Of a DNA stretch of 64,000 bases, positions 5,716 to 54,392 are shown one piece after another. Numbering within the stretch: the stretch's first letter is position 1; each line of letters opens with the position of its first letter. The stretch lies in assembly GCF_963082655.1 (NCBI RefSeq), contig NC_081552.1, positions 4,239,648 through 4,303,647 of the forward strand, in the 5' to 3' direction. This stretch comes from Stomoxys calcitrans (lineage: Eukaryota > Arthropoda > Insecta > Diptera > Muscidae). The position numbers and the translations under genes were made by a program. The notes beneath the pieces are model-generated. The model searched no databases, was not told where the DNA came from, and worked only from the letters and a program-made list of their open reading frames with translations.

Positions 5716-6560
5716 CATAGACCGATCCGCCGATTTTAGGTCTTAGGCCCATAAGAGCCACATTTATTGTCCGATTTTGATGAAACAGTGACAGGACAAT
5801 GAGTTGCGTTAGCCCTCATGATTGTTCCAGTTTTGGATCTAGTTGCCATATAGACCGATCTCTCGAAGAAAAGGTGCATTTATTGTCCGATTTTGCCAAA
5901 ATTTGGTATAGTAACCCTTCTTTAATTTGACTCAGATCGGTCCAACTTTGGATATAGCTGCCATATAGACCCATCTCTCGATTTAAGGTTTTGGGCCCAT
6001 ACAAGGCGCATTTACTATCCGATGTCACCGAAATTTGGTACAGTGAGTTGTGTTAGACTCTTCGACATCTTTCTGCAATTTGGCCCAGATCGCTCCAGAT
6101 TTGGATATAGCTGCCATACAGTCCGATCTCTCGATTAAAGGTCTTGGGCCCATAAAAGACGTATTTACCGTCCGATGTCGCCGTTATTTGGGACAGTAAG
6201 TTGGGTTGGGGCCTTCGGCATCTTGCTTAAATTTGGCCCCGATTGGTCCAGATTTAAATATGGCTGCTGTAGACCGATCTCTCGATTTAAAGTCTAGGCC
6301 CCGTAAAAAGTCCATTTATATCCGATTTCGCTGAAATTTGACACAGTGACTTATGTTAGGCTTTTCGACATCCGTGTGGTCTATGGTTCACATCGGTCTA
6401 TGTTTGGATATAGCTGCCAAAAAATTAATATTTTGTTCCACAAAATTTAACAATGACTTGTACTTATTAGACCAAATCGGAACATTTTTCAATATAGCTG
6501 CAATGGGGGCATAAATTATGCGTTTTTCACCGGATTATGACGAAAGGTGGTTTACCCCCT
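5716..6560. repeat. R1 monomer array, inverted relative to 3175-4655
   Basis: Five or so monomers with the core GGATATAGCTGCCATATAGA are present in the opposite orientation to the upstream copy. It ends near 6560 in the 'TTTTTCACCGGATTATGACG' end module also seen at 21290 and 15510. Confidence 0.8.
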
Positions 6561-8185: not shown

Positions 8186-8479
8186 TATTTTATATAATAA
8201 CACTTTTTTAAAACAATAATTGACATTTTGCTTTGAGATAACTAAAACTATAATTTGCATTTTTGTCGCCTCAGTGCTGTGCAGTGGACTTACAAAATGA
8301 AATTTATGTGCCCAGCTAAATCGTTTATCGTGTTATGGAAATGCATGATTTTCTCTCTCTTCCTCTCACCGGCAGAACGATAAAAACTGGGGAAATCATA
8401 CAGCAAACAGAAAATATTCTAAGCAATCCAACGGAGCTAATACATTAAAGTTTATTGTATACAACAACAGCGTCTACTA
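8186..8479. other. Unannotated spacer between R2 and MITE copy 2
   Basis: No gene, tRNA or recognised repeat was seen here. Confidence 0.4.
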
Positions 8480-8718
8480 TTGGGTTGCCCAAAAAGTAAT
8501 TGCGTATTTTTTAAAAGAAAGTAAATGCATTTTTAATAAAACTTAGAATGAACTTTAATCAAATATACTTTTTTTACACTTTCTTTCTAAAGCAAGCTAA
8601 AAGTAACAGCTGATAACTGACGAAGAAGAAAGAATGCAATTACAGAGTCACAAGCTGTGAAAAAATTTGTCAACGCCGGCTATATGAAAAATCCGCAATT
8701 ACTTTTTGGGCAACCCAA
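8480..8718. mobile_element. Mariner-type MITE, copy 2
   Basis: This is a complete 239-bp copy beginning TTGGGTTGCCC and ending GGGCAACCCAA, with TA target duplications at 8478-8479 and 8719-8720. Confidence 0.92.
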
Positions 8719-9218
8719 TACAAGCAATAATTTCGAATTTCTTTCTTTTTTTGTTGTCCAACCTAATAGAGAATCACTTTCATTGATCTTTCACTTTTCA
8801 AAATAGCTTAATCGTTTATCCAATTATCGAAATTGGCTCTCTTTCTCGAAATCGCATGCGGAAACGGCTGCCTTATGATTTATGAAAATATGAAATGTAT
8901 GCTCCAAATGAGATCTAAATCTCTCACTTACCATATTTTTCGCATAAATGCCTGCCAGCGTTTTAGCCAAATGACTTTATGCTCTACTTTCAAATGGGAT
9001 CATCAATTTGAAAGAACATTAGCATTTCAATAGGGACCAGTAACATCGCCTTTGTGCTAAAACTTCTTTGGTAGTATTCTTAAAAATATTTGCCACTGAT
9101 TAAAGACTCAAGACAGCATATGCTGCAGCTATTCAAAGGGTTGCCAGAAAAAGAAATATTTTTTTTTTGTTATATTGCAAAAACGACTAGAATACATTTC
9201 ATAAAATCTAAATTTCTA

Positions 9219-10069: not shown

Positions 10070-12393
10070 TCAGTGACGATAAATTACTTTATTTCTACTA
10101 GGACGCCTCCTTACCATACTATTTTTACTTAATGGCTTGCCAATTTGAAGCTGTGATTTCTTGGCTCTCTTATTGTCAGCTTTGGCTTGTAGCCGATTTG
10201 TGGTGAACCTTCTACGGGGATTTAATTTAAATAATCGTCTCGTGTGTTTCTTGGAATTATTTCGTCGCAAATAGTACACTTCCCGCACCAGACTGTAGCC
10301 TTGTTCCTCATCCAGAATGGTGGCAGAAAACTCTTTGAAATAATTGCCGGCTATGGTTAAGGTTTCATCTAACTTTGCATAGGGCCCATACAATGTGGTC
10401 ATGGGAGGCCAATAACCACTACGGTGGCTGCCAAAGGGATGGCCATTGATAACGAATGAGCTCCAGAGATCAACCATACGCTTGGCCATGGCCTCATCGG
10501 GGGGACTTAGTTTTTTCACATGATCCGGATAGGGAAAGAGATACAACGCCTCATCTGTCAAGGATACTCCGCCCTTGAAAGGGCTCTGCATATTGTGCTC
10601 CTCATCCATATCACGATAGCGATTAAATTCCCCCGCATAGTCAAAGGAATAAAGGAATGTGTTTTCCGGCACATGTTTGTTGTTCATATTCAAAGCCAAT
10701 AAAACGGGCAATTTATGTATAAGAGTGCCGGCCACCTAAAAATGGCGAGGACAATTGAAAATTTTGGAAAATTTTTGGATTTTACAGTATTGGTTGCTTT
10801 CGCGTTGTTCTTACGTCGATTAGTCGTGGTATGAGTGTTGCAAATGTTCCATTTTCCATAAGCCTTCTATTGAAGAAGTCATGCGTAATGAAACTGGTAA
10901 GAAGCATAGTTTTGTCCGTGCCCACAGCTTGGCGTATCACATGGTCTATGTAGTCGAAACTATTGTAGGTGTCATCCGGTATGTTACCCTCAAAATCATT
11001 TTCGACAATTTCTGCAATTTAACACTTTTGTAGTTGCAAGATCTTGAAAATATCTCTCTTACCATTTATTGTCTTAGATCCGGCATTTTTCGGGCACCCT
11101 CCCATAGCAGGATAGGAATAATTGGACTTTAACATCAAATCGTAGGGATGTTCGGGCAGCACGCCACTAGGTCCGCCGATGGTGAATTGTATGCCACCTG
11201 TATAGCCCACACCTAATTCCGATTTTTCAATCTGGATGCCATGAAAAATATTTCAAATTGAACAAAATAATTGTTGTAAAAAAGCAATTCACACCATAAA
11301 CACCCTTCTCGAACCGCCTCACAGGTTGCCTAGAGATGACGCCTGACAGAAGTGTCGGCAATTGGAAAACTTATACTTACACCATGTTCCATAAAAGCTT
11401 CCAAAAGCTCCAAGGGTGCCATATCCATGAGACATCTGTTTAGATCACCCACCGTTGTAAGATTACAATCTGCCTTTTCGGCTATTTCTTGGGCAAATTT
11501 TCTGGGATTTTCCTCCAAAAATATGGGCATAAGTGCCGATCCTGAATGATATATGACCTGATGGAATAGACCCTTTTCCACCTGGAAAAAAAAAGTGGAA
11601 AGTTCTTTCTTCATAACTGCCATATTGACACAGATTCATTCCTTTTACCTTTGGCGACAATGTTAAGAGATGCGCTATGGCAGCCCCTCCCACCTGACCA
11701 GCTACAGTCACCTTATTAGGATCACCACCAAAGTATTTAATAAAATATTTTATGTACTGCAAAGCCAGAAAGATGTCCAAGACACCAGCATTGCCGGGAA
11801 TTTCATCCGTTTTGGTGGACAAAAATCCAAAGGGGCCCAGACGATATTGTGGCACCACCAACACAATATCCTTTTCCAGAAGATAGTCGGGGGGAGCTTC
11901 GGAATTGCTGCCCTCAAAGAAATATTCACCATGTAGATAAACTAAAACAGGATAACTGCCATTTAGGCCAGGGGTGGTTATGGTCATTGTCAGGCAGTCC
12001 TCAATGTCCATAATCTCATCCAGTTTTTGCAAGGACTCCATGGCCACAATGGAAGGACATCCAATTTTAGCTGCTGTAGCATCCATTACATCTTCCCAAG
12101 GCTCCACAGGACGGGGGGCCTAAAATTGAAAAGTTTACAAAGAACTGCCCCAGAGCACATGCTTGCATGCAGCATACCTTAAATCTATGAACTCCGGATG
12201 GTGATTCCCCATACTTGACGTCCACAAATTGCAAAACTTCTCTCCTACTCCAGGCAGTCTCCAATATCTTGCCTTGTACTGTTCCCAAATTTGGCAACTC
12301 GACAATGGTATCCTTCTCCTCGTCATAGGCCTGAGTGGAATCGAGCGAGGCCAACAGCGCCATTAGCGCAACCACCTTCAGTGTGTGGAACAT
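10070..12393 (-). CDS. Glutactin-like catalytically dead carboxylesterase-family protein, basic tail
   Basis: Six exons in transcript order: 12393-12178, 12119-11649, 11581-11381, 11231-11063, 11011-10815 and 10735-10070 (stop included). All are GT-AG and the reading frame is continuous over 639 residues. The start (MFHTLKVVALMALLASLDSTQAY) gives a clean signal peptide of about 22 residues. The esterase fold is recognisable (DIEDCLTMTITTP, QYRLGPFGFLST, GLFHQVIYHSGSAL). The nucleophile elbow is AGQVGGA, so Ser becomes Val at about residue 215. The acid motif is CPKNAGS (Glu to Ala) and the His position is Leu (GVSLTDEALYLF). The last 60 residues are strongly basic (RRLFKLNPRRRFTTNR and onward). 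The gene is predicted to be secreted and inactive as an esterase. It shares exon sizes 201 and 197 with its neighbours, which supports tandem duplication. Confidence 0.92.
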
Positions 12394-13539: not shown

Positions 13540-14692
13540 GAAGTAAAATAGAGAGATCGGTTTATATGGGAGCTGTATCAGGCTACAGACCGATTCGGGC
13601 CATATTTGACACGTATGTTGAAGGTCATGGGAGAAGCCGTTGTATAAAAATCGGATAATAATTACGCCCTCTAGAGGCTCAAGAAGTCAAGACCCAAGAT
13701 CGGTTTATATGACAGCTATATCAGGTTATGTCTCGATATGAACCATTTTTGGCACAGTTATTAGAAGTCATAACGAAACACGTCATGCGAAATTTTAGCC
13801 AAATCGGATAAGAATTGCGCCTTCTAGTGGCTCAAGAAGTCAAGATTCCAGATCGGTTTATATGGCAGCTATATCAGGTTATGAACCGATTTAGACCATA
13901 CTTAGCACAGTTGTTGGAAGTCATAACAAAACACCTCATGCTAAATCTCAGCCAAATCGGATAGGAATTGGGCCCTTTAGTGGCTTAAGAAGTAAAGATC
14001 CAAGATCGGTTTATATGACAGCTATATCAGGTTATGGACCGATTTAAACCATACTCAGCACAGTTGTTGGAAGTCATAATAAAACACTTCATGGAAATTT
14101 TCAGCCAAATCGGATAAGAATTGTGCCCTTTAGTGGCTTAAGAAGTGAAGATCCAAGATCGGTTTATATGACAGCTATATGAAAACATGGACCGATATAA
14201 CCCATTTATAATCCCAACCGACCTACACTAATTAGAAGTATTTGTGCAAAATTTCCAGCGGCTAGCTTTGCTCCTTCGAATGTAAGCTTGCTTCCTACAG
14301 ACAGACGGACGGACATGGTTAGATCGACTTAAAATGTCATAACGATCAAGAATATATATATTGGGTTGCCCAAAAAGTAATTGCGGATTTTTTAAAAGAA
14401 AGTAAATGCATTTTTAATAAAACTTAGAATGAACTTTAATCAAATATACTTTTTTACACTTTTTTTCTAAAGCAAGCTAATAGTAACAGCTGATAACTGA
14501 CTGAAGAAAGAATGCAATTACAGAGTCACAAGCTGTGAAAAAAATTTGTCAACGCCGACTATATGAAAAATCCGCAATTACTTTTTGGGCAACCCAATAC
14601 TTTATGACGTCTTAGTCGAATATTTCCAGAATTTACAAAGAGAATAACGAAATTAGTATACCCCCATCCTATGGTGGAGGGTATAAAAATCA
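13540..14692. repeat. R1 element, subfamily 2, interrupted by a MITE
   Basis: Five monomers with the core GATCGGTTTATATGACAGCT are followed by the border module ending GGTGGAGGGTATAAAA at about 14675-14690. MITE copy 3 sits inside the border's TATATATA stretch. Confidence 0.82.
14361..14597. mobile_element. Mariner-type MITE, copy 3, nested in R1
   Basis: It begins TTGGGTTGCCC and ends GGGCAACCCAA with TA on both sides. The flanks (GATCAAGAATATATATA and CTTTATG) rejoin into the uninterrupted R1 border seen at about 28695-28725 in inverse orientation, which proves precise TA-targeted insertion. Confidence 0.93.
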
Positions 14693-15420
14693 TGAACATT
14701 GGTCCTTGTTTAGGTATATCCCCCATATAGTGGTACTGCCCGGTTTCACCTATTTTAAAGGGGTTTGAAGGTTTTTTTTCAACAAATGGTGCTGTTATTT
14801 GGCATTTTTGCTTATCAGAGGGCAACGAATATGCAAACCAAAAATTTTCAAGACAGGTCCATGTTTTGACATAACCTCCATATGGCAGTACCGACCAATT
14901 TCATCTATTGGGTTGCCCAAAAAGTAATTTCGGATTTTTAATATAGTCGCTGTTGACAAATTTTTTCACAGCTTGTGACTCTGTAATTGCATTCTTTCTT
15001 CTGTCAGTTATCAGCTGTTACTTTTAGCTCGCTTTAGAAAAAAAGTATATTTGATTAAAGTTCATTCTAAGTTTTATTAAAAATGCATTTACTTCCTTTT
15101 AAAAAATCCACGTTTACTTTTTGGGCAACCCAATATTTTGATTTTGAGGGATTGGACGTTATTGTTCAACAAATGTAGCTGTAATATGGCATTTTGGCTT
15201 CTAAGAGTGCGACAAATATGTAAAACAAAATTATCAAGATAGGTCCATCTTTTGACATAGTCCCCATATTGCGATACCGCCTAATTTTACCTATTTTTTT
15301 AGTTTTTACCATATTTGTCAACAAAATGTCACTTGGCTATTAAGAGAGTAAAAATGTGCAAAGTAAAAATCATCATCATAAAAAATCATATGTCCATTTA
15401 ATGTATGAGGAATAATAAGC
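14693..15420. repeat. Tandem repeat (roughly 160-190-bp units) interrupted by a MITE
   Basis: Three diverged units start near 14697, 14857 and 15237. Each has 'AGGTCCAT/CTTTTGACATA', a 'CCCCATAT' block and 'TTCAACAAATG'. They are distinct from R1 and R2, have no coding potential, and hold MITE copy 4. Confidence 0.6.
14908..15133. mobile_element. Mariner-type MITE, copy 4, opposite orientation
   Basis: TTGGGTTGCCC to GGGCAACCCAA with TA at 14906-14907 and 15134-15135. The body is inverted relative to copies 1-3. Confidence 0.92.
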
Positions 15421-16660: not shown

Positions 16661-16665
16661 CGACG

Positions 16666-17150
16666 CACAGTGTTGCACAAAACGAAAAGTCTTGGAAATG
16701 AGTCTAAAACTTTTTATCGGTTGATTTTAGCGGTACAAAATATTCTAGACATTTGTAGAGGACATAGGCTTTCAGGAAAGGCTTAAAAATGTTTAAGAAT
16801 ATTGACATATATTTTTTTTTTATTTTAAGCATACATGCACTGACACAGTTTGTGTGAAATAGCTCAAAAATTGAAAAAAAAAATCAATCGAACTCTGATA
16901 AAACCCAAGACAAAATTTTGATATTTTTAGATCTCGTCAAGCTCTTTTTCTAGAGTCCTTAATCTTGCAAATCGGTTCGGTAGACCAAAAGTTATGGCCC
17001 TCAGAAGGCTGGAGAAGTCAAAAGTAGTCGACTTTGACACCCTGTATTAAAGATATGGACTTTCCTGAAAGCCTATGTCCTCCTCTATAAATGTCCAAAA
17101 CATTTTCTACCTCTAAGATCAACAGATTATTTGCCGTTTGGCCCACTGTG
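16666..17150. mobile_element. Non-autonomous Transib element (MITE), 485 bp
   Basis: It starts CACAGTG and ends CACTGTG, with a perfect 5-bp CGACG duplication at 16661-16665 and 17151-17155. This fits the GC-rich 5-bp target preference known for Transib elements. The outer 100 or so bases resemble the TIRs of the autonomous element at 37798-43146 (ATTTGTAGAGGACATAGGCT, AAACTTTTTATC). An internal block resembles that element's subterminal 'AAAAGTTATGGCC ... GGAGAAGTCAAAAGT'. No coding capacity. It is inserted in a LINE relic. Confidence 0.92.
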
Positions 17151-17259
17151 CGACGGTAGCATTGTTAAACGCCAGAAGGAATGAAAAAGGGGAAGACTAA
17201 AACTCCGATGAAAACATAGAGATTAACCTGGTAGAGGTTTATCTCTATATCTGAGATTA

Positions 17260-19364: not shown

Positions 19365-21366
19365 TTATACCCACCACCGAAGGATGGGGATATATTATTT
19401 TGTCATTCCGTTTGCAACACATCTAAATATCCATTTCCGACCCTATAAAATATATATATTCTTGATCAGCGTAAAAATCTAAGACGATCTAGACATGTCC
19501 GTCCGTCTGTCTGTTGAAATCACACTACAGTTGAGATACATTGAGATATTGAGCTGAAACTTTGCCCAGATTCTTTTTTTGTCTATTAGCAGGTTAAATT
19601 CGAAGATGAGCTATATCGGACTATATCTTGATATAGCCCCCATATAGACCGATCCGCCGATTTAGGGTCTTAGGCCAAAAAAAGCCATATTTATTTTCCG
19701 ATTTTGCTGAAATTTCGGACAGTGAGTTGTGTTAGGCCCTTCGACATCCTCCGTTAATATGGCTTAGATCGGTCCAGATTTAGATATAGCTGCCATATAG
19801 ACCGATCCTTCAATTTAGTGTCTTAGGCCCATAAAAGCCACATTTATTATCCGATTTTGCTGAAATTTGGGACAGTGAGTTGTCTTAGGCTCTTTGACAT
19901 ACTTCGTCAATTTGGCCCAGATCGGTTCAGATTTGGATATAGCTGCCATGTAATCCGATCCTCTGATTTAGGGTCTTAGACCCATAAAAGCCAAATTTAT
20001 TATCCGATTTTGCTGAAATTTGGGACAGTGAGTTGTCTTAGGCTCTTTGACATACTTCGTCAATTTGGCCCAGATCGGTTCAGATTTGGATATAGCTGCC
20101 ATGTAATCCGATCCTCTGATTTAGGGTCTTAGACCCATAAAAGCCACTTTTATTAACCGATTTTGCTGAAATTTGGGACAGTGAGTTGTCTTAGGCCCTT
20201 CGACATCCTTTGTCAATTTAGCTCAGATCGGATCAGATTTGGATATAGCTGCCATATAGACCGATCTCTCGATTTGAGGTTTTGAGCCCATAAAAGGCGC
20301 ATTTACTGTCCGATGTCGCCGAAACTTGGGACAGTGAGTTGTGATGAAACTTTCGATATTATTTTTCAATTTGGCTCAGATCGGTTCAGATTTGGATATA
20401 GCTGCCATGTAATCCGATCCTCTGATTTAGGGTCTTAGACCCATAAAAGCCAAATTTATTATCCGATTTTGCTGAAATTTGGGACAGTGAGTTGTCTTAG
20501 GCTCTTTGACATACTTCGTCAATTTGGCCCAGATCGGTTCAGATTTGGATATAGCTGCCATGTAATCCGATCCTCTGATTTAGGGTCTTAGACCCATAAA
20601 AGCCACTTTTATTAACCGATTTTGCTGAAATTTGGGACAGTGAGTTGTCTTAGGCCCTTCGACATCCTTTGTCAATTTAGCTCAGATCGGATCAGATTTG
20701 GATATAGCTGCCATATAGACCGATCTCTCGATTTGAGGTTTTGAGCCCATAAAAGGCGCATTTACTGTCCGATGTCGCCGAAACTTGGGACAGTGAGTTG
20801 TGATGAAACTTTCGATATTATTTTTCAATTTGGCTCAGATCGGTCCAGATTTGGATATAGCTGCCATATAGACTGATCCTCCGAATAAGGGTTTTAGGCC
20901 CATAAAAGGCGCATTTATTGTCCGATGTCGCCGAAATTTGGGACAGTGAGTTGTCTTAGGCCCTTTGACATACTTCGTCAATTTGGCCTAGATCGGTCCA
21001 GATTTGGATATAGCTGCCATGTAGACATATATCTTGATGAAAACCCTTGGCCCAATAAAAGGCGCATTTATAATCCGATTTCACTGAAATTTGACACAGT
21101 GACTTATGTTAGGCTTTTCGACATCCGTGTCGTTTATGGTTCAGAGCGGTTTATTTTTAGATATAGCTACTAAAAAGAGCAAAATTTTGTTTTATACAGT
21201 TGAACAATGACTTTTACTTATTAGTATTTGGTCCAAATCGGAACATATTTCGATATAGCTGCTATGGGTCATAAGGTATGCATTTTTCCCCGGATTTGAC
21301 GATACCCACCGAGGTGGTGGGTATCCAAAGTTCGGCCTGACCGAACTTGACGCCTTTTTACTTGTT
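19365..21366. repeat. R1 element, subfamily 1, complete long copy with internal duplication
   Basis: It runs from TTTTTATACCCACCACCGAA to GTTCGGCCTGACCGAACTTG, in the same orientation as and directly abutting the previous copy. It contains a higher-order repeat: the three-monomer block 19926-20385 is repeated almost exactly at 20386-20845, an offset of 460 bp. Confidence 0.9.
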
Positions 21367-22541: not shown

Positions 22542-24818
22542 TTAATATTTATTCCTATGGGCGATTAGTACAATATTTCCACCGCGAGCTTCACCAGGTG
22601 AATCATTGTCATTGTCTTCTTCCTCTTCCTCCTTCTCCTTGGAGTTATCGTCCTCCTCAGTGTCTTCCATTAAAACATCGAAATAGTCATCGTTGACCAG
22701 ACTATAGCCCATATCGGCTTCCTGGACTGCGGCAGTAAATTCATCGATGTAGTTGTCACCCACGGAGACGGTCTTGCCAATTTTCAAATATGGGCCCGCA
22801 CTGCCCGTCATTGCCGGCCACTCAGGCATATTGGGGGCAGTGGGTTTGCCAGTAGCAGCAAATGATGCCCACAGTTTGACCATGCGCGCAGCCACTTTCA
22901 TATCACGGTTGGTGTTGACCATCGAGTAGCGGGGCCAGGGGAACAAGTAGAGATTTTCATCGGTAAGGGATACACCCAATTCGAAGGGCATGTCTCCTTG
23001 GTCCTCAAAGGTGCCATAACGATTAAATTCACCCTCATAGTCAAAGGAATACAGGTAAGTGTTATTGGGCATTTTGCCGGCATTTCCCTGCATGGCCAGC
23101 AGCACAGGATTTTTGTAGGCAATTGTGCCGCACAACTACAAAAAAACAAAATAAATGATCAACCTTTTGGGGCAGCGCGAAGAGGAAAGTATTGCACTAA
23201 CATCTATTAAACCGGGAGTCAAACAACGGAAGCTGCCATTCTTCATTTGTTCTTCGGTGAAGATTTCCTCTTTGGCGAATTTCATCCAGGCTCCACTACG
23301 ATCAGGACCATTCGTCTCCACAATGATTTGCTTAACATAGTCGGTGGCATTCATTTGGTCATCGGGGATGGTCTCATTGAAGCTGTCAATATAGATGTCT
23401 ACAATGGCCCAGGCCCATTAGTCTTGCCCAGAGAAATGATGAATGAGCATGATGACAACATACCTTTCAATGGTAGGGTACCGGCATTTTTGGGCGTACC
23501 ACCCATGGTGGGATAAGCCTTGAAATTGCCCGAGGTCAAAAGTTTGGCAGGGAATTGAGGCAAGATATCCGAAGGTCCTCCCACCACAAATTGTGCTGCT
23601 CCCGTGGAACCCACACCCTGGCCGATTTTCGAAGCTCCATGCTTGCTGAAGGCATCCAACAATTCGGTGGTATTCAATTTGCGCAAACATTTGTTGAGGG
23701 ACTCCACCTTATTGACATTCTTGCAACCGGCATATTTGCCAATATCCTTTGCCGCTGGCAGCGGATTATCAGTTATGAAAGCAGGCGACAAAGCCGAACC
23801 TGACTGATAGATTACACGATGGAAGAGACCATCGGACACCTGGAGTAAAACACAGACACATAAATTAGAATCGTTTTGGAAGGTCTCAAGAGCCCATACT
23901 TACCGCAGGACTCATGGTCAATATGTTGACCATAGCAGCACCACCTGATTGGCCAAACAGTGTCACCTTGTTTGGATCTCCTCCAAAGGAGGCAATATTA
24001 TTTTGCACCCATTTCAGGGCTAAGATGACATCTGTGACACCAGCATTGCCAGGTATATCGTCGGTCATGGTCGACAGGAAACCGAAAGGACCCAAGCGAT
24101 AACGCACCAAAACCAAAACGATATCCTCTTCCAAGAGATAGCCAGGTGGGCTGTCCAGAACACTGCCATCGTACAAGTTATCACCATGGATGTACACCAT
24201 AACCGGCGAACTGGAAGAGAACTAATACAACAGCTGGGTAGCTTTATTCATTTCTTGTTGCTGGCACCTTTCAATGTTGCTTACCGATTTGGTGCTGATT
24301 GTTACACTCAGACAATCCTCGGCCTCAATATTCCTGGCCTTCAAGGCATCATAGTCCTTATCGTCCTGTATGGAAGGACACCCTCCGAAGGGTCTTTCGG
24401 TCTTCATGGTGCCCGTCCAAGGAGCCACAGGCGATGCTGGCTTAAATCTCATGGCACCACTGGCCCCCTGGGCATATGGAATATCAAAGAACTGTATGAT
24501 GGTTTGCCCCGTCCACTCGGACTTGACTACGCGGCCTCTCACAGCCCCCAAACCAGGAATGATGTGGTTTACCAAGGTTTTCTTGGCAGTCGGTTTTTCT
24601 TTGTTCATTTTATTGCCATTTTTATTCCTATTGTTATTCCTATTATTATTCCTGTTGCCATTTGGCTTGCCCATGGGCTTCCTTTTATTATTTTGTTGCT
24701 GCTGGTGCTGCTGCTTTCCACCGCCACCACCACCATTCTTCCTACGGTTTTGCTGTTGAGCCTCGATCAGGGCGGCCCCGATCACCAGGATCAAAAGAAC
24801 CAAATACAATGGCCGCAT
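22542..24818 (-). CDS. Glutactin-like carboxylesterase-family protein keeping only the Ser of the triad
   Basis: Five exons in transcript order: 24818-24285, 24221-23904, 23839-23464, 23398-23202 and 23135-22542. The frame is continuous for 672 residues; the fourth intron uses a GTTAGT donor. A signal peptide (MRPLYLVLLILVIGAALIEA) is followed by a Gln/Asn/Lys/Gly-rich basic segment of about 60 residues, the esterase domain, and an acidic tail (LMEDTEEDDNSKEKEEEEED). The nucleophile elbow FGQSGGA keeps Ser at about residue 270. However, the acid motif is TPKNAGT (Glu to Ala), the His position is Leu (GVSLTDENLYLF), and the oxyanion motif is HGD, so hydrolysis is unlikely. Glutactin of Drosophila is the obvious comparison (extracellular, acidic C-terminal region), but orthology is not proven from sequence alone. 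Confidence 0.92.
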
Positions 24819-28614: not shown

Positions 28615-29945
28615 TTTTATACCCTCCACCATAAGATGGGGGGTATACTAATTTCGTCATTCTGTTTGTAACTACTCGAAATATTCGTCTGAGACCCCAT
28701 AAAGTATATATATTCTTGATCGTCGCGACATTTTATGTCGATTTAGCCAAGTCCGTCCGTCTGTCCGTCCGTCTGTCTGTCGAAAGCACGCTAACTTCCG
28801 AAGGAGTAAAGCTAGCCGCTTGAAATTTTGCACAAATACTTCTTTTTAGTGTAGGTCGGTTGGTATTGTAAATGGGCCATATCGGTCCATGTTTTGATAT
28901 AGCTGCCATATAAACCGATCTTGGGTCTTGACTTCTTGAGCCTCTAGAGTGCGCAATTCTTATCCGATTGTAATGAAATTTTGCACGACGTGTTTTGTTA
29001 TGATATTCAACAACTGTGCCAAGTATGGTTCAAATCGGTTCATAACCTGATATAGCTGCCATACAAACCGATCTTGCGTCTTGACTTCTTGAGCCTCTAG
29101 CGTGCGCAATTCTTACCCGATTGGAAAGAAATTTTGCACGACGTATTTTGTTACAATATTCAACAATTGTGCCAAGTATGGTTCAAATCGGTCCATAACC
29201 TGATATAGCTGTCATATAAACCGATCTGGGGTCTTGACTTCTTGAGCCTCTAGAGTGCGCAATTCTTATCCGATTGGAATGAAATTTTGCACGACGTGTT
29301 TTGTTACGATATCCAACAACTGTGCCAAGAATGGTTCAAATCGGTCCATAACCTTATATAGCTGTCATATAAACCGATCTTGGGTCTTGACTTCTTGAGC
29401 TTCTAGAGGGCGCAATTCTTATCCAATTTGAATGAATTTTGGCACGTAGTATTTTGTTATGATATCCAATAACTGTGCCAAATATGGTTCAAATCGGTTC
29501 ATAACCTGATATAGCTGCCATATAAACCGATCTGGGATCTTGACTTCTTGCGCCTCTAGAGGTCGCAATTATTATCCGATTTGCCTGAAATTTTGTACGA
29601 CGGATTCTCTCATGACCATTAACATACGTGTTTATTATAGTCTGAATCGGTCTATAGCCCGATACAGCTCCCATATAAATCGATCTCTCTATTTTACTTC
29701 TTGAGCCCACAAAGAGCGCAATTCTTATTCGAATTGGCTAACATTTTACACAGGTCTCCAACATATAATTTAATTGTGGTCTAAACCGGATTATATCTTA
29801 ATATCGCTCTAATAGCGGAGCAAATTTTTCTTATATCATTTTTTGCCTAAGAGAGATGTCGGGAAAAGAACTCGAGAAATGCGCTCCATGGTGGAGGGTA
29901 TATAAAATTCGGCCCGGCCGAACTTAGCACGCTTTCACTTGTTTC
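28615..29945. repeat. R1 element, subfamily 2, complete copy
   Basis: It runs from TTTTTATACCCTCCACCATA to GGCCCGGCCGAACTTAGCAC, with seven monomers of about 150-160 bp carrying GATATAGCTGCCATATAAAC and GGTCTTGACTTCTTGAGCCT. Confidence 0.9.
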
Positions 29946-33799: not shown

Positions 33800-34905
33800 G
33801 TTATAATAGAGGTGAGGTGGTCCGCCAGATATATGAGCAGAATAAAGATATCAAATTCGCAGTCCAAACTTATACATTGAATTTAACCCTATATTGTCAT
33901 AATTGGTGTATACAGCCGTTTGGCGCCCCCCACGCCTCCCTCCACCTGCCACTTGAGCACAAATTTGAATGACGCACTCCACTCAAAAATATCTATCACT
34001 TTATCCCCCATGGTTTTAATTGGTCAAATAAACAGTTGGAGGCGACTTTAGGAGGTAAAGCACCACCTAGATTCTTGGACACAAAGTTCAATGTCATATT
34101 CGTAATCTGCTACCAAATGTCTTTAATTTGAGTCTCATCTAGCTAGGATCGAATTGTATTCCCATTTGAGGGTGAGGCGACCCCCAATTACTTGGACCTC
34201 ATTTTTATGTCATATTCGTAGTCTAGTCCCGAATACCTTTCATTTGAGTACCATATTGATATTTACGTCCAATATAATTGTTTTGGGACGAGTTTTTGAA
34301 GTTGGACGACCCCTCACATACTTCATCCCAATTTTTAATACCATATTCGTATTCTACTCCCCAATACCTTTCATTTAAAACCCATATTCTCCCTATAGGT
34401 CCACTTTTGATTTTAGGAGGTGTTTTGGGGGTAACGGGGTAGGGTCCGCCCCCTTCCAATATCAACAAACTAAAAAGCCTTTTCCTCCTTCCCGCCCATT
34501 TTCGTAATCTACTCCCGAATACCTTTCATTCGAGACGCATATTGTCATTATCGTCCAACAAACCAATTTTATGGGGTTTTGGGGTTGGGCCGGTCCCCCC
34601 AGTTACCTGGATCCAGATTTTAATATGAAATTCGTAGTCTACTCTTGAATATCTTTCATATAAATCCCATATTTTCCCGATCGGTTCACTTTTATTTTGG
34701 GATAGTACTTTTGGGGTAAGGGGGAGGGTCCGCCCCCTACCAATATCAATAAATTATAAAGCCTATTGCTCCTTCCGGACCACTCCCCACAATCTGTGAA
34801 AATTTTAAAGAAATCGGTTCAGCCGTTTATGAAGCTATACGGAACAAACAAATTTACAAACCCACAAACATACAAACAAACACAAATTCATTTTCATTTT
34901 TATAT
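33800..34905 (-). mobile_element. R2 element fragment, minus orientation
   Basis: R2 units ('CTACTCCCGAATACCTTTCATT', 'GGGTAAGGGGGAGGGTCCGCCCCC'-like) end in the 'CGGTTCAGCCGTTTATGAAG ... ACAAACAAACACAAATTCATTTT' terminus at about 34818-34905. It directly abuts MITE copy 5. Confidence 0.65.
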
Positions 34906-35105
34906 ATAGTCGGCGTTGACAAATTTTTTCACAGCTTGTGACTCTGTAATTGCATTCTTTCTTCTGTCAGTTATCAGCTGTTACTTTTAACTTGCTAGAA
35001 AAAAGTGCAAAAAAAAGTATATTTGATTAAAGTTCATTCTAAGTTTTATTAAAAATGCATTTACTTTCTTTTAAAAAATCCGCAATTACTTTTTGGACAA
35101 CCCAA
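34906..35105. mobile_element. Mariner-type MITE, copy 5, one end lost
   Basis: It contains the MITE body from AGTCGGCGTTGACAAATTTT to the terminal TTTTTGGACAACCCAA. The outer 25 or so bases of the left TIR are missing. Confidence 0.85.
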
Positions 35106-36162
35106 TATATAGATATATCCGATTTTATGAGAACAGAAGGTCCGTTTTATATACAAAGAATACGAAATCATCAAAAATAGTTTGGAAATTTTTTTATGCC
35201 CAAGATATCTGTAAAATTATAAATACCACGATAAATGCCCAAAAAAGGTATTTATTGGGTATTTATCCAATAATTACCCAAGCGTTGGGTATTTACCCGG
35301 TAGAAATCCATCCCTACTGATGTTGTATAACACACCACCATCGGTTATTTTCCATACGGACAGACTATAAAAAATTAGAAAAATCTAGAATCTTTTGAAA
35401 TCGATAGCATGCAGACCAAATTGAAGCAGCCCAACTCCCCCTATCATATATGTCGATTAACGCAAGAACTTTCAAATATAGCACACATAAATATGTATAT
35501 TGGTATGTAGGTACATTTGTAAGTTAGTTTGTTTCCATGAAACCTTTGTCCATCCTGTAGCGTGAAAGCTTAAAAATAAATAAATATTAAGAGCCACTGA
35601 AAAATAGCTGCTTGCAATCAATCAAAAACGTCACACAATGAAAAATAACTCTTATCCCCCCGCCATTCAAATGTACCTTTGTAAGCCTAAAGCTGAATAC
35701 CATCACACCTTTTGAAATCGGTTGTCTTATGGTGCATTTGTGTGTTTGGCTTAAGTCGAAGGCATTACGATAACACAATTTGCTAAAGAGGCCTTTCTAT
35801 ACATATTTGCAATAGGTTAAAATGTTCAAAACCAAAGAGGTAAGTTTGTGAGTATAAGGGTAGAACGTGAAATGTGTTTAAGTCAATGATGGGTACAGCA
35901 ATGTAAAACAACAACAATGCGTCGACCGAACGAAGCCACACGAAGTTGCTTACACTGTACGTGTGCGTACGTGTCCTTTGCCCGCGGGCATAAGAATTCA
36001 TATGCGGTTGTATGTTGTTGCCCATCTATGGTGCAAATATGTTTATTGAGATGCGTAAATAGGTAAGTAAAGAAGCGAACTATTCCAAAAAAAAATTTAA
36101 AAATGTAACTTAATTGTACTAACGGATAATTTTTTTAAAAGCTCAAGGAAAGTTGTTCAAAA
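35106..36162. other. Spacer without recognised gene
   Basis: No supported feature. Confidence 0.35.
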
Positions 36163-36357: not shown

Positions 36358-37013
36358 TTACAGGTAGTGGCAGTTGCCCAACAACAAAATATTTGATGCA
36401 CTATCTAAATAGTGTGTATGTAATGCAAGTTCGCGCCATTCTTCGTTATTTGTGTGTGCGTTATGGTTCTTAACTATAATACACACACACAACCAAAACT
36501 CGTTGACAGAAAGAGCACTTCGTGAGAAAAAATTGTACTCAGCTGTTTACGGTTCACTACCTGGTAATTATGTGATGATCCAAACCTATGGCGCAACAAT
36601 TAATGGTGGTCTCATTTGTACAACAACCACAAATCATATGGCGGAATCAACCATCTTGTCATCAAGCGTGTGAGACCACCTTTTTAAATCCGCCTTGATC
36701 CAAACCAAGCATTTGACGTTCTAGTGGGATTTGGATACAACTCTGAAGTTGGACAATTCCATCAGCTGGGCAAGTGAGCCAACTTTGTTAATTCAACTAT
36801 GAACTAGAAAGTCAATTGACTTATAAAAATCTTTTCAAACAAGGTAAAAAGATTTTAATACAGAAATTCACTGTTTTTTGTATCGCGTGGTTCGTACATA
36901 AGGCGTGACAATTTTTTCTCGCGAAGTGCACTTTCTGTTAACGAGTTTTGGTTGTGTGTGTATTATAGTTAAGAACAATTACACACACAAACAACGAAAA
37001 ATGGCGCGAACTA
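36358..37013. repeat. R3 dispersed repeat copy
   Basis: It contains 'GTTCTTAACTATAATACACA', 'CTCAGCTGTTTACGGT' and 'CAAACCAAGCATTTGACGTTCT' blocks, which recur at 55240-55755. A partial inverted copy of the first block lies at 36890-37010. Other copies are at 57785-58030 and 59160-59480. Its class is unknown and it has no protein. Confidence 0.65.
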
Positions 37014-37252
37014 TTGGGTTGCCCAAAAAGTAATTGCGAATTTTTCATATAGTCGGCGTTGACAAATTTTTTCACAGCTTGTGACTCTGTAATTGCATTC
37101 TTTCTTCTTCGTCAGTTATCAGCTGTTACTTTTAGCTTGCTTTAGAAAAAAAGTGTAAAAAAAGTATATTTGATTAAAGTTCATTCTAAGTTTTATTAAA
37201 AATGCATTTACTTTCTTTTAAAAAATACGCAATTACTTTTTGGGCAACCCAA
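37014..37252. mobile_element. Mariner-type MITE, copy 6
   Basis: Complete 239-bp copy, TTGGGTTGCCC to GGGCAACCCAA, with TA at 37012-37013 and 37253-37254. Confidence 0.92.
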
Positions 37253-37792
37253 TATATAAAATCATGGCTATTAAAAATGGATAATATAAAATCATGGATA
37301 AAAAGAAGTTAGGACCAGAATGAGGAGCTTTGGTTGGAGAGGGCGAAATCTGATGACATCTAAAGATTAAGATAATGTTTGAAGTATGATGAACCCCATG
37401 TTAAAGTAAGTGTCCGATATTAGATAGAATGTGTCCGCAATGTTTGTCTGTGTTGAGAAAGTTTTATATTGGAGCACGTTCAATTTTGTACTTGGTATCG
37501 ATTGAGAGCAAAGGGTCAAGAATCAGCCCCATCCCCCATTCTTGTATGTAACCTCACATTCGAACCGAAAGATTAGCGAAAGATACCATTACAAGCGTGT
37601 TACAATATTTCTGTGTTGCGATAACAACTTTCCGTCTCCATCCAACAATGGTTGGCTAAAATGGGATGCTTCCAGAGTGGCCTGGTGTACGTTGGCGTTT
37701 CCCTTGCCAAAAGGAGTTGAGGTGGCTGAATCTACCGAATCGTTCTTGGGCAGAACTACTTTAGAGAGTAGAATAAAGGCTTGTTTCTACTA
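37253..37792. other. Unannotated spacer left of the Transib element
   Basis: A 5' open frame here (from 37542) runs into the transposon and has no recognisable homology, so it is not called. Confidence 0.35.
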
Positions 37793-37797
37793 CGTCG

Positions 37798-39228
37798 CAC
37801 AGTGGGCCAAATGGCAAAAAAATTGGAAATAAGTCTACAACTTTTTATCTGTTGATTTTAGCCATACAAAATGTTCTAGACATTTGTAGAGGAGGACATA
37901 GGCTTTCAGAAAAGTGCTGTTGTTGGTCCATATCTTTAATACAGGGTGAGCTACAGGGTGTCAAAGTTGACCACTTTTGACTTCTCCAAGCTTCTGGGGG
38001 CCATAACTTTTGATCTACTCAACCGATTTACATGATTTAGGACTCTAGAGAAAGAGCTTGACAAGATCTAAAAAACGTATGCATAAAGTACCATGCCATC
38101 GTGTACTGTTAAGGAGTTATGAATTGTTTAATTTTAAAATATGAAAATTTGGCCTTGGTTTTTTTCAGTGTTTTTTAAATAACTCCGTCAATTTTAAAGC
38201 TATAAACTTCATACTTCACACAAATTATGCCAGCATATGTGTGCATAAAATACAAAAGGAATCACGTGAATATCTTTGGCGGTTTAAAAATGGCATCGTT
38301 TTCAATATGAAAAATATTTTTTTTGTCAAAAAATTGCAAAATTTTTCAAAAAAGATACTCCCATTTCCTTTAAGTTTTCGCAAACTTTGGCCGTCAAAGC
38401 ATTATCATTTCTTTCCATTTTCACAAAGTCGAGGTATTAAGAAAAGTTTTAAGTGCTAATTTGGCTAATTTCGATATCAAACAACACCGTTATCTTAAGA
38501 CCAAAATGGCCAATTTTTTTACTAAACTTCAAAAGTTTCTCACTGGAAAAAAAGTTCCACGGGGATTTTTTCGCTTTTTTTGAACTTAAATGAAAGCTTA
38601 AAATGTTCCCAACATTTTAAGGTATGTCTCGCCATATCCTAGCCATAAATGAGATCGTAGCGATCAAAATACTGAAAAAAGTCAATTTTCAAGTAGTGCT
38701 ATATTCATTGCTAAAAAACAAGTATTACGTCACATTTTATTGCAAAGATGTTAAATAAACTTTTATTTGGTAACACTTCTTCTACAAAACACAAAAAGAA
38801 TCATGGAAATATCTCTATTCTATTCCATTTTATGGAACCGGCAATAAAAAAGTCAATTTTTCAAAAAAGTCGAATTTCCCAAATTTTGTTTTTGTTGTCC
38901 TAATTGCACATGACACACTATAGCCATATTTACGCAACATACCTTATCGTAAAGGAAATTTTCATACCTTTCCAACAATGTATAAAACATTTCTCAACTC
39001 GGATTCTATCTACTCTAAAATTCATTTACACTTCATTAAACTCTATATAAAAATGTCTATTTGTGAAATGGAACCTTATATGGGGCCTACACTAAAACAT
39101 TGATAGATTTGCCCAGGGTTTACAATACAAATGTGTTAGAATAAAAAAAGGTCTCCTGCCAAAGTTTAAAAAAATTGGAATAAAAATATGTGTTTTAGAG
39201 CGAAAACACTTCGCATCGGCGTGCGTTT
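37798..39228. repeat. Transib left terminal inverted repeat, 1431 bp
   Basis: It is the inverse complement of 41716-43146. The outer heptamer CACAGTG equals the consensus V(D)J signal heptamer. After a 12-base spacer comes an A-tract (37817-37823). A 72-codon open frame in both copies is a by-product of the repeat. Confidence 0.95.
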
Positions 39229-39624
39229 GTATAGTACCTACATCTATTTTTAATGTAAGCTGATGATTTTTGAATAAAAAGTAACCTAGAAATATACCTG
39301 CATATATATATATATTTGTGTTAAGATTTGATGCAGACAAATGTTACCTGTTTCGCTATGTCGAATTCCCAGGAAATCCACCGTATCAATGAATGTGAAA
39401 AAACCTACCCATAAAAAATTCATTGTCATTTTTTTTAACCAAATTCGAGTCCAGGTAAATAATTATAGAAGAGTAAGTAAAAAGAGGCACTTTGGACCCC
39501 TTTTTACGATTGCGTCTGATACCTGAAATGGGTCATTAATTGTGAATATATTGCATAAATATTTGAACAAAATCCAAATTTTCTTCATTATATTTTGTAG
39601 AGGCGTAAAGGACATTTATAAGTT

Positions 39625-41667
39625 ATGGAAGTCATACTGAAGTATTCCACTCTTTCGAAAATTGTATGGGACATCAAAAATGATTCCAAATCATACACGG
39701 AGTCATTTAAGGAACTTGTTTACACTTTGGACCACATATATGGAATAAGGCTAAATAAAGACGCTTTAGACAAACTTGAAAAATTCTACAAATCATTTGA
39801 GAGAAGGTTGCCAGAATGTTCATTCGCAAAAATCAAGTTTTTCAAAATGTATGAGAAGTGGCTGAAATCGGATCTACTTATTGAAATTAAACCGCTGATT
39901 CCCGGCCGGCCTAGCAAAGCATACGACGAAGTTACGGAGAAAACCAAAAAGAAAAAACAAGAGGAACTATTGGCGGCACATCCGCCAAATTTAATAAAAG
40001 ATACGTTCAAAACAGCATTGTTAAAAACACAACCAAAAAATGTTGGACGAATTGTCGATGTTTTACCATTAGCATCTCCGAAAAGGGAAAAGAGAATGGT
40101 AGAAAGTATTCCAACTCCAAAATCGACTACAGAATTCACGGAGGAAGATGCACTGGCCCTGATTTTGAACCTAGGCCTCTCAAGAAACAAATACTCAACA
40201 ATGAGGAAGGCTCTTCGTGAAAAAGGATGGGGTTGTTTACCCTCAAAACATAAATTGTACAACACCAGGACGAAAATGGTGCCATCAAATACATACGTGG
40301 ACGAATTAAAAGCAGGAGTGAAACTTGCTGATCTTGTTGAAAATACAGCTGTTAGAATTATTTCTAATTTTACTGAAGAACAGTTGAACACATGTAATAA
40401 TTCCGAAGTGGTTTTGATCAGCAAATGGGGTTGTGATGGATCATCTGGATTTTCCGAATATAAGCAACAAACAGAAATAGATACCAACTTCGCATCAATT
40501 TTCATGGCATCATTAGTACCATTGAGAATGAGATTGTACAAGGACCAATCTTCATCATCGAAAGAAAATGCATTTCAAGATATATGGATAAATAGAACAC
40601 CTGGGTCAAAATATTTATGTCGCCCAATTCGGTTTGAGTATACAAAGGAAGACCGGAACACAACACGATCTTTGGTGAACGAAATAAAGGAAGAAATTGC
40701 TGCATTACCCATGATTGTTATAAACCAATTGGGAAGAAATATAAAAGTTTCGTTTCAACTACAACTCACTATGATCGATGGAAAGGTGGCAAACGCATTA
40801 ACTGGCGTTATGTCCAATTGGAGATGCAATATTTGTGGCAAGAAGAATGGGCAATTCGAGGACAAGTCTGATGAAAATTTAGTAAACGAAAATGCGCTCA
40901 ATTTCGGTATTTCGCCCCTGCACTGTAGAATTCGAATCATGGAGTATTGTTTGCATTTATCGTATGACCTTAAATATCGGACTAGCCCTGGAAACCGCGA
41001 TGTCTCTGCTAGAAACAACCAAGATCTTCACAAAATGAGGCAGGAAGAGAAGAATCGAATCCAGTTGGAGTTTAAACAAAAGGGACTTATAATAGATAAA
41101 CCTCTTTACGGATACGGAAGCACAAATGATGGCAACTCGGCAAGGCGGTTTTTTGAGGACCCCGTATCGACATCTAAAATAACCGGTCTTGATGAACACT
41201 TGCTAAGACGATTCAAAGTGATTTTGGCTGTAATCAATAGCAAAAAGATGATAAATTCAACCAAATTTGAAGCTTATAGTAATGACACAAAAAACATTTT
41301 ATCTGATTTATATTCGTGGAAAGCTTTAACACCGACAGTACATAAAGTCTTACATCATGGCAAGGAAATTGTGGAATACAACATACTTCCGTTAGGAGAA
41401 CTTACAGAAGAAGCTCAGGAATCCCGTAATAGAGATGTTAAACAGTTCCGGCTTTTCAATACCCGAAAGAGCACCAAATTTAACCAAAATTATGATTTAC
41501 TTCAATATTTATTGTTATCGTCTGATCCGGTACTATACAGCATCAGAACTAAATGGCTACCAAAAATATGTGACGATATAGATAAGGACGATCCCGATGC
41601 CATTCAAATTAAAGAGCTTTTAAATTTTGATACCTTAGATTATTTGGTAGAGAATAAAATCAAATAA
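39625..41667 (+). CDS. Transib transposase (RAG1-core homologue), 680 aa, intact
   Basis: This is a cut-and-paste DDE-type transposase acting in the nucleus on the element's TIRs. ATG 39625 is fixed by an in-frame TAA at 39619-39621. Landmarks, by recognition of Transib/RAG1 conserved blocks: WGCDGSSGFSEYKQ with D271, equivalent to the first RAG1 catalytic Asp region; RPIRFEYTKE at about 339-348; a CNIC zinc pair, C401 and C404; FGISPLHCRIR around H433; GSTNDGNSARRFFEDP at about 497-512; HKVLHH (H573, H577, H578), matching the RAG1 HKTLAH zinc histidines; and LTEEAQESRN with E599 as the probable third catalytic acid. The second catalytic Asp was not assigned by eye. The basic, Lys-rich N-terminal 150 residues are not recognised. 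A splice-like pair (donor about 39456, acceptor about 39600) suggests an untranslated first exon. No RAG2-like gene is present. Confidence 0.94.
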   Translation: MEVILKYSTLSKIVWDIKNDSKSYTESFKELVYTLDHIYGIRLNKDALDKLEKFYKSFERRLPECSFAKIKFFKMYEKWLKSDLLIEIKPLIPGRPSKAYDEVTEKTKKKKQEELLAAHPPNLIKDTFKTALLKTQPKNVGRIVDVLPLASPKREKRMVESIPTPKSTTEFTEEDALALILNLGLSRNKYSTMRKALREKGWGCLPSKHKLYNTRTKMVPSNTYVDELKAGVKLADLVENTAVRIISNFTEEQLNTCNNSEVVLISKWGCDGSSGFSEYKQQTEIDTNFASIFMASLVPLRMRLYKDQSSSSKENAFQDIWINRTPGSKYLCRPIRFEYTKEDRNTTRSLVNEIKEEIAALPMIVINQLGRNIKVSFQLQLTMIDGKVANALTGVMSNWRCNICGKKNGQFEDKSDENLVNENALNFGISPLHCRIRIMEYCLHLSYDLKYRTSPGNRDVSARNNQDLHKMRQEEKNRIQLEFKQKGLIIDKPLYGYGSTNDGNSARRFFEDPVSTSKITGLDEHLLRRFKVILAVINSKKMINSTKFEAYSNDTKNILSDLYSWKALTPTVHKVLHHGKEIVEYNILPLGELTEEAQESRNRDVKQFRLFNTRKSTKFNQNYDLLQYLLLSSDPVLYSIRTKWLPKICDDIDKDDPDAIQIKELLNFDTLDYLVENKIK

Positions 41668-41715
41668 TACAAAACTAAAATGCTTTTTTATTTTGGGAGT
41701 AGCTAATATACATAT

Positions 41716-43146
41716 AAACGCACGCCGATGCGAAGTGTTTTCGCTCTAAAACACATATTTTTATTCCAATTTTTTTAAACTTTGGCAGGAGACCTTTTTT
41801 TATTCTAACACATTTGTATTGTAAACCCTGGGCAAATCTATCAATGTTTTAGTGTAGGCCCCATATAAGGTTCCATTTCACAAATAGACATTTTTATATA
41901 GAGTTTAATGAAGTGTAAATGAATTTTAGAGTAGATAGAATCCGAGTTGAGAAATGTTTTATACATCGTTGGAAAGGTATGAAAATTTCCTTTACGATAA
42001 GGTATGTTGCGTAAATATGGCTATAGTGTGTCATGTGCAATTAGGACAACAAAAACAAAATTTGGGAAATTCGACTTTTTTGAAAAATTGACTTTTTTAT
42101 TGCCGGTTCCATAAAATGGAATAGAATAGAGATATTTCCATGATTCTTTTTGTGTTTTGTAGAAGAAGTGTTACCAAATAAAAGTTTATTTAACATCTTT
42201 GCAATAAAATGTGACGTAATACTTGTTTTTTAGCAATGAATATAGCACTACTTGAAAATTGACTTTTTTCAGTATTTTGATCGCTACGATCTCATTTATG
42301 GCTAGGATATGGCGAGACATACCTTAAAATGTTGGGAACATTTTAAGCTTTCATTTAAGTTCAAAAAAAGCGAAAAAATCCCCGTGGAACTTTTTTTCCA
42401 GTGAGAAACTTTTGAAGTTTAGTAAAAAAATTGGCCATTTTGGTCTTAAGATAACGGTGTTGTTTGATATCGAAATTAGCCAAATTAGCACTTAAAACTT
42501 TTCTTAATACCTCGACTTTGTGAAAATGGAAAGAAATGATAATGCTTTGACGGCCAAAGTTTGCGAAAACTTAAAGGAAATGGGAGTATCTTTTTTGAAA
42601 AATTTTGCAATTTTTTGACAAAAAAAATATTTTTCATATTGAAAACGATGCCATTTTTAAACCGCCAAAGATATTCACGTGATTCCTTTTGTATTTTATG
42701 CACACATATGCTGGCATAATTTGTGTGAAGTATGAAGTTTATAGCTTTAAAATTGACGGAGTTATTTAAAAAACACTGAAAAAAACCAAGGCCAAATTTT
42801 CATATTTTAAAATTAAACAATTCATAACTCCTTAACAGTACACGATGGCATGGTACTTTATGCATAAGTTTTTTAGATCTTGTCAAGCTCTTTCTCTAGA
42901 GTCCTAAATCATGTAAATCGGTTGAGTAGATCAAAAGTTATGGCCCCCAGAAGCTTGGAGAAGTCAAAAGTGGTCAACTTTGACACCCTGTAGCTCACCC
43001 TGTATTAAAGATATGGACCAACAACAGCACTTTTCTGAAAGCCTATGTCCTCCTCTACAAATGTCTAGAACATTTTGTATGGCTAAAATCAACAGATAAA
43101 AAGTTGTAGACTTATTTCCAATTTTTTTGCCATTTGGCCCACTGTG
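41716..43146. repeat. Transib right terminal inverted repeat, 1431 bp
   Basis: Mirror of 37798-39228, ending GGCCCACTGTG. It begins only 48 bp after the transposase stop codon, so the transcript's 3' end must lie in the repeat. Confidence 0.95.
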
Positions 43147-43151
43147 CGTCG

Positions 43152-44046: not shown

Positions 44047-44060
44047 TTGTTATTCAGAAT

Positions 44061-44459
44061 AGGGGAAAAGGGAGTAGGGGAAAAGGGAGTAGGGGAAAAG
44101 GGAGTAGGGGAAAAGGGAGTAGGGGAAAAGGGAGTAGGGGAAAAGGGAGTAGGGGAAAAGGGAGTAGGGGAAAAGGGAGTAGGGGAAAAGGGAGTAGGGG
44201 AAAAGAGAATAGAGGAAAAGGGAGTAGGGGAAAAGGGAGTAGGGGAAAAGGGAGTAGGGGAAAAGGGAGTAGGGGAAAAGGGAGTAGGGGAAAAGGGAGT
44301 AGGGGAAAAGGGAATAGGGGAAAAGGGAGTAGGGGAAAAGGGAGTAGGGGAAAAGGGAGTAGGGGAAAAGGGAGTAGGGGAAAAGGGAGTAGGGGAAAAG
44401 GGAGTAGGGGAAAAGGGAGTGGGGGAAAAGGGAGTAGGGGAAAAAGGAGTAGGGGAAAA
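44061..44459. repeat. G-rich 15-bp minisatellite, about 26-27 units
   Basis: The unit is GGGGAAAAGGGAGTA, nearly perfect with a few variant units (GAGAATA near 44205, GGGAATA near 44310). It is flanked by direct copies of TTGTTATTCAGAATA at 44047-44061 and 44472-44486. Four G-runs per two units make G-quadruplex formation plausible. Open frames across it are an artefact of the 15-nt period. Confidence 0.95.

Positions 44460-48921: not shown

Positions 48922-54392
<5,471 letters not shown>

What the first reader, a model, noticed from the sequence alone, without database searches (positions are those of the whole stretch)
37798..43146. Intact Transib transposon whose termini are the exact V(D)J heptamer CACAGTG
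The sequence shows CACAGTG at both ends, a CGTCG duplication, and an uninterrupted 680-codon RAG1-core-like transposase. Transib elements are the accepted relatives of the RAG recombinase, but intact copies are uncommon in my experience. Undisrupted coding sequence and nearly identical TIRs make this a candidate active element in a fly.
Basis: partly seen in the sequence, partly recalled or inferred. Interest (0 to 1): 0.88.

Follow-up and report, generated by a model that had tools for sequence, protein, structure and literature searches.

The report
Intact Transib transposon in stable fly
A structurally complete jumping gene of the Transib family, the relatives of the enzyme that rearranges our antibody genes, sits in a stable fly genome with very long mirror-image ends; it is a good new example of a known kind, not a new kind of system.

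Summary

Added here: (1) the inverted repeats are 1,431 bp with 2 mismatches, against 33-45 bp in five D. melanogaster Transibs; (2) a gene-less 485-bp relative lies at 16666-17150, with CACAGTG ends and its own duplication CGACG; (3) on one strand both insertions sit at CGTCGTCAT; (4) the NBD-like region matches RAG1 only weakly; such a region is already published for Transibs.

No RSS nonamer and no 12/23 asymmetry. Full-length and mobile insect Transibs are known. Recent insertion is likely; present activity, copy number and an empty site could not be checked, as the genome search did not complete. An ordinary member with unusually long ends.

The parts
37793..37797 (.). 5' target site duplication CGTCG
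37798..39228 (+). left terminal inverted repeat, 1431 bp, begins CACAGTGGGCC
   Evidence: 2 mismatches to the right arm
37798..37804 (+). terminal heptamer CACAGTG, identical to the V(D)J RSS consensus heptamer
   Evidence: RSS consensus from PMC8289069 passage
39625..41667 (+). transposase gene, single open frame, 680 aa, Transib superfamily
39904..40107 (+). [quoted passage not shown]
   Evidence: weak structural match to 3gna 389-456; Foldseek not significant; reported for Transibs in PMC9435367
40435..40437 (+). catalytic D271 (codon)
   Evidence: 34 of 34 rows; aligned to HzTransib
40777..40779 (+). catalytic D385 (codon)
   Evidence: 34 of 34 rows; aligned to HzTransib
41419..41421 (+). 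catalytic E599 (codon)
   Evidence: 34 of 34 rows; aligned to HzTransib and RAG1
41716..43146 (-). right terminal inverted repeat, 1431 bp, ends ...GGCCCACTGTG
43147..43151 (.). 3' target site duplication CGTCG
16661..16665 (.). target site duplication CGACG of the second, non-autonomous element
16666..17150 (-). non-autonomous relative, 485 bp, CACAGTG at both ends, made mostly of TIR-like sequence in both orientations (88% identical over 116 aligned bases at one end, 80% over a 228-column block at the other)
17151..17155 (.). target site duplication CGACG of the second element

Best explanation
The element is a recently inserted, structurally autonomous Transib DNA transposon of Stomoxys calcitrans. 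Its single gene makes a RAG1-core-like DDE transposase. By analogy with HzTransib and RAG, a dimer pairs the two identical ends, nicks next to CACAGTG, turns the nicks into flank hairpins and blunt transposon ends, and joins these ends to a target 5 bp apart, giving the CGTCG duplication. The same or a related transposase would also have moved the 485-bp gene-less copy. Shown here: ends, duplications, open gene, catalytic residues, family, second copy. Inferred: the reaction steps and that it can still move.
Against: No evidence of movement: no empty-site allele, copy number, transcript or small-RNA data could be reached. The window copy has T223 and I438 where 17 of 33 relatives have I and 23 of 33 have F; P0001 has I and F there, so this copy may not be the best working one. 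It also has R215 where 33 of 33 others have K. TIR identity could be kept by gene conversion.
Confidence: 0.95

Rival explanations
1. Recent but already immobile copy: the gene is open, yet the copy no longer moves, because of silencing (for instance RNA read through the 1.4-kb inverted arms folds into double-stranded RNA and feeds small-RNA silencing) or because of private substitutions.
For: Substitutions at T223 and I438 against the commonest residues of the family, absent from P0001. Arms of 1431 bp differing at 2 positions would pair if transcribed through (inference).
Against: The catalytic and zinc residues are all kept. No small-RNA or expression data were available either way.
Confidence: 0.4
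2. The near-identity of the arms says little about age: it reflects gene conversion between arms or assembly of one arm onto the other.
For: Arms longer than a short read can be collapsed in assembly, and long inverted arms can convert one another (general knowledge, not tested here).
Against: The two differences sit inside the arms and each arm has its own flank and its own CGTCG; the gene is also open and little changed at conserved columns.
Confidence: 0.15
3. A host gene domesticated from a Transib transposase, with the inverted repeats a leftover.
For: Open reading frame of full length.
Against: Complete matching ends and duplications and nearly identical arms point to a young transposon, not an old gene.
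Confidence: 0.03

Closest known systems
HzTransib (Helicoverpa zea)
   Same: Homologous transposase over about residues 168-670 (36% identical over the structural alignment), DDE triad, 5-bp duplication; a full-length 3518-bp element described as having long TIRs (PMC1852546 passages).
   Different: This element is 5349 bp, its protein carries roughly 150 more residues before the shared part (model residue 168 on chain residue 21), and its duplication is CGTCG rather than GCTCG. The TIR length of HzTransib is in a figure that is not held.
Drosophila melanogaster hopper and transib1-4
   Same: Fly Transibs; hopper and transib2 have 5-bp duplications and de novo insertion sites, so they move or moved recently in nature (PMC3276498 passages).
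   Different: Their TIRs are 33-45 bp (PMC10299278 table) against 1431 bp here; hopper and transib2 have the target motif CCANTGG against CGTCG(TCAT) at the two sites here. No sequence comparison with them was made.
RAG1/RAG2 and ProtoRAG
   Same: RAG1-core fold and the same catalytic residues by alignment, terminal heptamer identical to the RSS consensus, NBD-like N-terminal region (weak).
   Different: No RAG2-like gene, no RSS nonamer at 12 or 23 bp, no end asymmetry.
Other Transib-like proteins of Stomoxys (P0036, P0042)
   Same: Same superfamily, same host genus (names given by sources; P0036's is cut off after 'Stomoxys c').
   Different: 48% identical over 60% and 35% over 87% of the query, and in other parts of the tree: separate lineages.

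Membership tests
Transib superfamily | transposase closer to Transib than to any other family | tested here: met
Transib superfamily | D-D-E triad and C2/H2 zinc residues | tested here: met
   34 of 34 rows at D271, D385, E599, C401, C404, H573, H578; the 34 rows are the window protein and 33 of the 120 relatives listed
Transib superfamily | 5-bp target site duplication | tested here: met
   CGTCG and CGACG, 2 of 2 elements in the window
Transib superfamily | inverted ends starting with an RSS-like heptamer CAC... | tested here: met
   CACAGTG at 4 of 4 ends
Transib superfamily | a single gene, no RAG2-like partner | tested here: met
   one sense ORF; the only other ATG ORF of 100 aa or more between 36500 and 44500 lies antisense inside it
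Transib superfamily | nick-hairpin cut-and-paste movement | not testable with these tools
   needs biochemistry
Transib superfamily | NBD-equivalent with GRP | tested here: inconclusive
RAG / V(D)J RSS | nonamer ACAAAAACC at 12 or 23 bp and 12/23 asymmetry | tested here: not met
   5 of 9 and 4 of 9 matches at spacers 12 and 23; best 6 of 9 at spacers 9 and 11; 4, 4 and 5 at spacers 20-22; the ends are identical
ProtoRAG / RAGL transposons | convergent RAG1L and RAG2L genes | tested here: not met
   no second sense gene of 100 aa or more in the element
currently active element | polymorphic insertion, transcript, new insertions | not tested
   genome search unanswered; no reads available

The most novel reading that the evidence does not exclude
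A Transib lineage with kilobase-long, fully symmetric ends that it has kept for a long time (the diverged 485-bp copy already carries several hundred bases of the same arm sequence, though in its parent these could have been single-copy), and whose transposase prefers an extended target CGTCGTCA(T) rather than the CCANTGG of Drosophila hopper and transib2. The long arms would then have a role, such as extra transposase binding or hairpin RNA, and the element would be a natural RAG-type system working with two identical ends.
Probability: 0.2. Interest if true: 0.45.

Novelty: new member of a known kind. Interest (0 to 1): 0.3.

Why it matters
It supplies a full-length, apparently recent Transib from a blood-feeding fly, with an N-terminal region that the solved HzTransib chain lacks, so it could be used to ask what the NBD-like part does and whether RAG-type transposases need only the outermost bases or also long arms. 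Beyond that it is an ordinary transposon of a well-described superfamily.

Tried and rejected
Rejected: ProtoRAG/RAGL (no RAG2-like gene); RSS-like bipartite end (9-mers with 6 or more matches make up 2.7% and with 5 or more 11.4% of all 9-mers in the arm, so 6 of 9 among 20 spacers is unremarkable); coding content in the arms (longest stop-free frame 104 aa; not searched for homologues); more Transib remnants in the window (tblastn of 120 relatives at 1e-3: 121 hits, none outside the gene). Not pursued: whether the insertion broke a host gene (the joined flanks hold a 111-codon and a 70-codon open frame across the junction). A scan of viral contigs with the protein profile gave 50 pattern matches and no confirmed relative; records near the window's own genome may be left out there. 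The first 60 bases as RNA do not fold better than shuffles (z 0.41). Foldseek on the NBD piece gave no match under 0.001. In the full-length model the region before residue 168 is barely covered by the matches. Literature: no held paper has both 'Transib' and 'long terminal inverted repeats' or both 'Stomoxys calcitrans' and 'Transib'; 'Transib' with 'long TIRs' gave 11 papers, of which I opened PMC1852546 (passages); 'Transib' with 'CACAGTG' gave 3, of which I had opened PMC8289069 (passages). Kapitonov and Jurka 2005 is not held and is known to me only by recall and citation.

Full report
What is there. The window holds a 5,349-bp element at 37798-43146. It starts and ends in CACAGTG and is bounded by CGTCG on both sides. 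The two arms are inverted repeats of 1,431 bp that differ at two positions (1,435 bp with three). Between the arms lies one gene, 39625-41667 on the plus strand, 680 codons without a stop.

Host. Translated exon pieces of a heat-shock 70 kDa protein 4 gene in the window (48925 to about 52640, minus strand) are identical at 762 of 762 aligned residues to the Stomoxys calcitrans protein, with 39 gap columns where I had left exon sequence out, and at 693 of 761 to that of Haematobia irritans. The source is the stable fly or something indistinguishable from it at this gene.

A second copy. A 24-base terminal pattern is found at a third place. It closes a 485-bp element at 16666-17150 that begins and ends in CACAGTG and is flanked by CGACG on both sides. 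It has no room for the gene and no protein match. At one end 102 of 116 aligned bases match the first 121 bp of the long arm; the other part matches at 80% over a 228-column block and at 68% over a further block reaching arm position 460, with many indels; about 35 bp in the middle match nothing by BLAST. I read it as an internally deleted, non-autonomous relative, older than the large copy. It supports the element borders and the 5-bp duplication independently. On one strand both insertions read CGTCG-element-CGTCGTCAT. CGTCGTCA occurs three times in the window on either strand, and two of the three are these insertions. With two sites, seen after the fact, this is a lead on target choice, not a result.

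How it probably works. Inference from HzTransib and RAG: the transposase pairs both ends, nicks at the heptamer border, makes hairpins on the flanks and inserts the blunt transposon ends at sites 5 bp apart. Because both arms are identical over the end region, there is no 12/23-type asymmetry. I looked for the RSS nonamer ACAAAAACC at spacers 8 to 27: the best match is 6 of 9 (spacers 9 and 11), 5 of 9 at spacer 12, 4 of 9 at 23, and 4, 4 and 5 at spacers 20-22, the distance at which nonamer-like sequence is reported in other Transibs (PMC8355894 passages); an AT-rich arm gives such matches by itself. So the resemblance to a V(D)J signal stops at the heptamer. Identical heptamers, and even nonamers and 12/23-like spacing, in some Transibs are already on record (PMC6941560 and PMC8355894 passages), and most Transib families have symmetric ends (PMC8289069 passage).

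How unusual it is. Five D. melanogaster Transibs have TIRs of 33, 43, 42, 45 and 40 bp (hopper, transib1-4; PMC10299278 table). HzTransib is said to have long TIRs, length not stated in the passages I saw (PMC1852546). So 1,431 bp is far beyond those fly examples, but long TIRs as such are not new for the superfamily. Full-length and mobile Transibs are known: hopper had 533 and transib2 7 de novo insertion sites in one D. melanogaster panel (PMC3276498 table), and 79 of 120 listed relatives here are 640 aa or longer.

Age and relatives. Two differences in 1,431 bp correspond to roughly 120,000 to 250,000 generations at three Drosophila-like mutation rates that I supplied from memory, with a wide error (95% range of the count 0.24 to 7.2), and only if the arms change independently. 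A protein with four amino-acid differences (P0001) exists in an unnamed data set whose species I do not know. In a tree of 46 rows (the window protein and 45 of the 120 relatives) it groups with P0001 and P0003, inside an 11-row clade (support 100/99) that includes a moth protein (Eumeta japonica, P0023), while two other Stomoxys proteins fall elsewhere. That fits the spread between hosts described for Transibs (PMC9435367) but was not tested.

What is missing. The host genome search did not complete in seven identical tries, so copy number, empty sites and other duplications are unknown. Nothing here shows that the element moves today.

Noticed in passing
window 16666-17150: Non-autonomous Transib relative with its own CGACG duplication; described in the report.
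   Followed up: yes
window 44060-44459: 15-bp tandem satellite, 26.7 copies at 97% matches, about 0.9 kb beyond the element's right end.
   Followed up: no
window 3370-4364, 5924-6419, 13648-14180, 19630-21168, 28881-29737: Five arrays of a 153-bp tandem unit, some in opposite orientation to others, with shared families 60% or more alike.
   Followed up: no
window 8478-8720 and 37012-37254: Two 243-bp inverted-repeat elements, 99% alike in opposite orientation, with ends TATTGGGTTGCCCAAAAAGTAATTGCG, looking like a mariner-type MITE (label recalled); related stretches near 14918-15139 and 34881-35111.
   Followed up: partly
window 802-2736 (+), 10073-12119 (-), 22545-24221 (-): Exons of apparently three carboxylesterase-family genes in the first 25 kb: 6 of 8 frames scanned match PF00135.
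   Followed up: no
window 48925-52640 (-): Heat-shock 70 kDa protein 4 gene, 762 of 762 aligned residues identical to Stomoxys calcitrans; used to name the host.
   Followed up: yes
window 44775 (+): The only CGTCGTCA in the window that does not flank a Transib element; an unoccupied candidate target.
   Followed up: no
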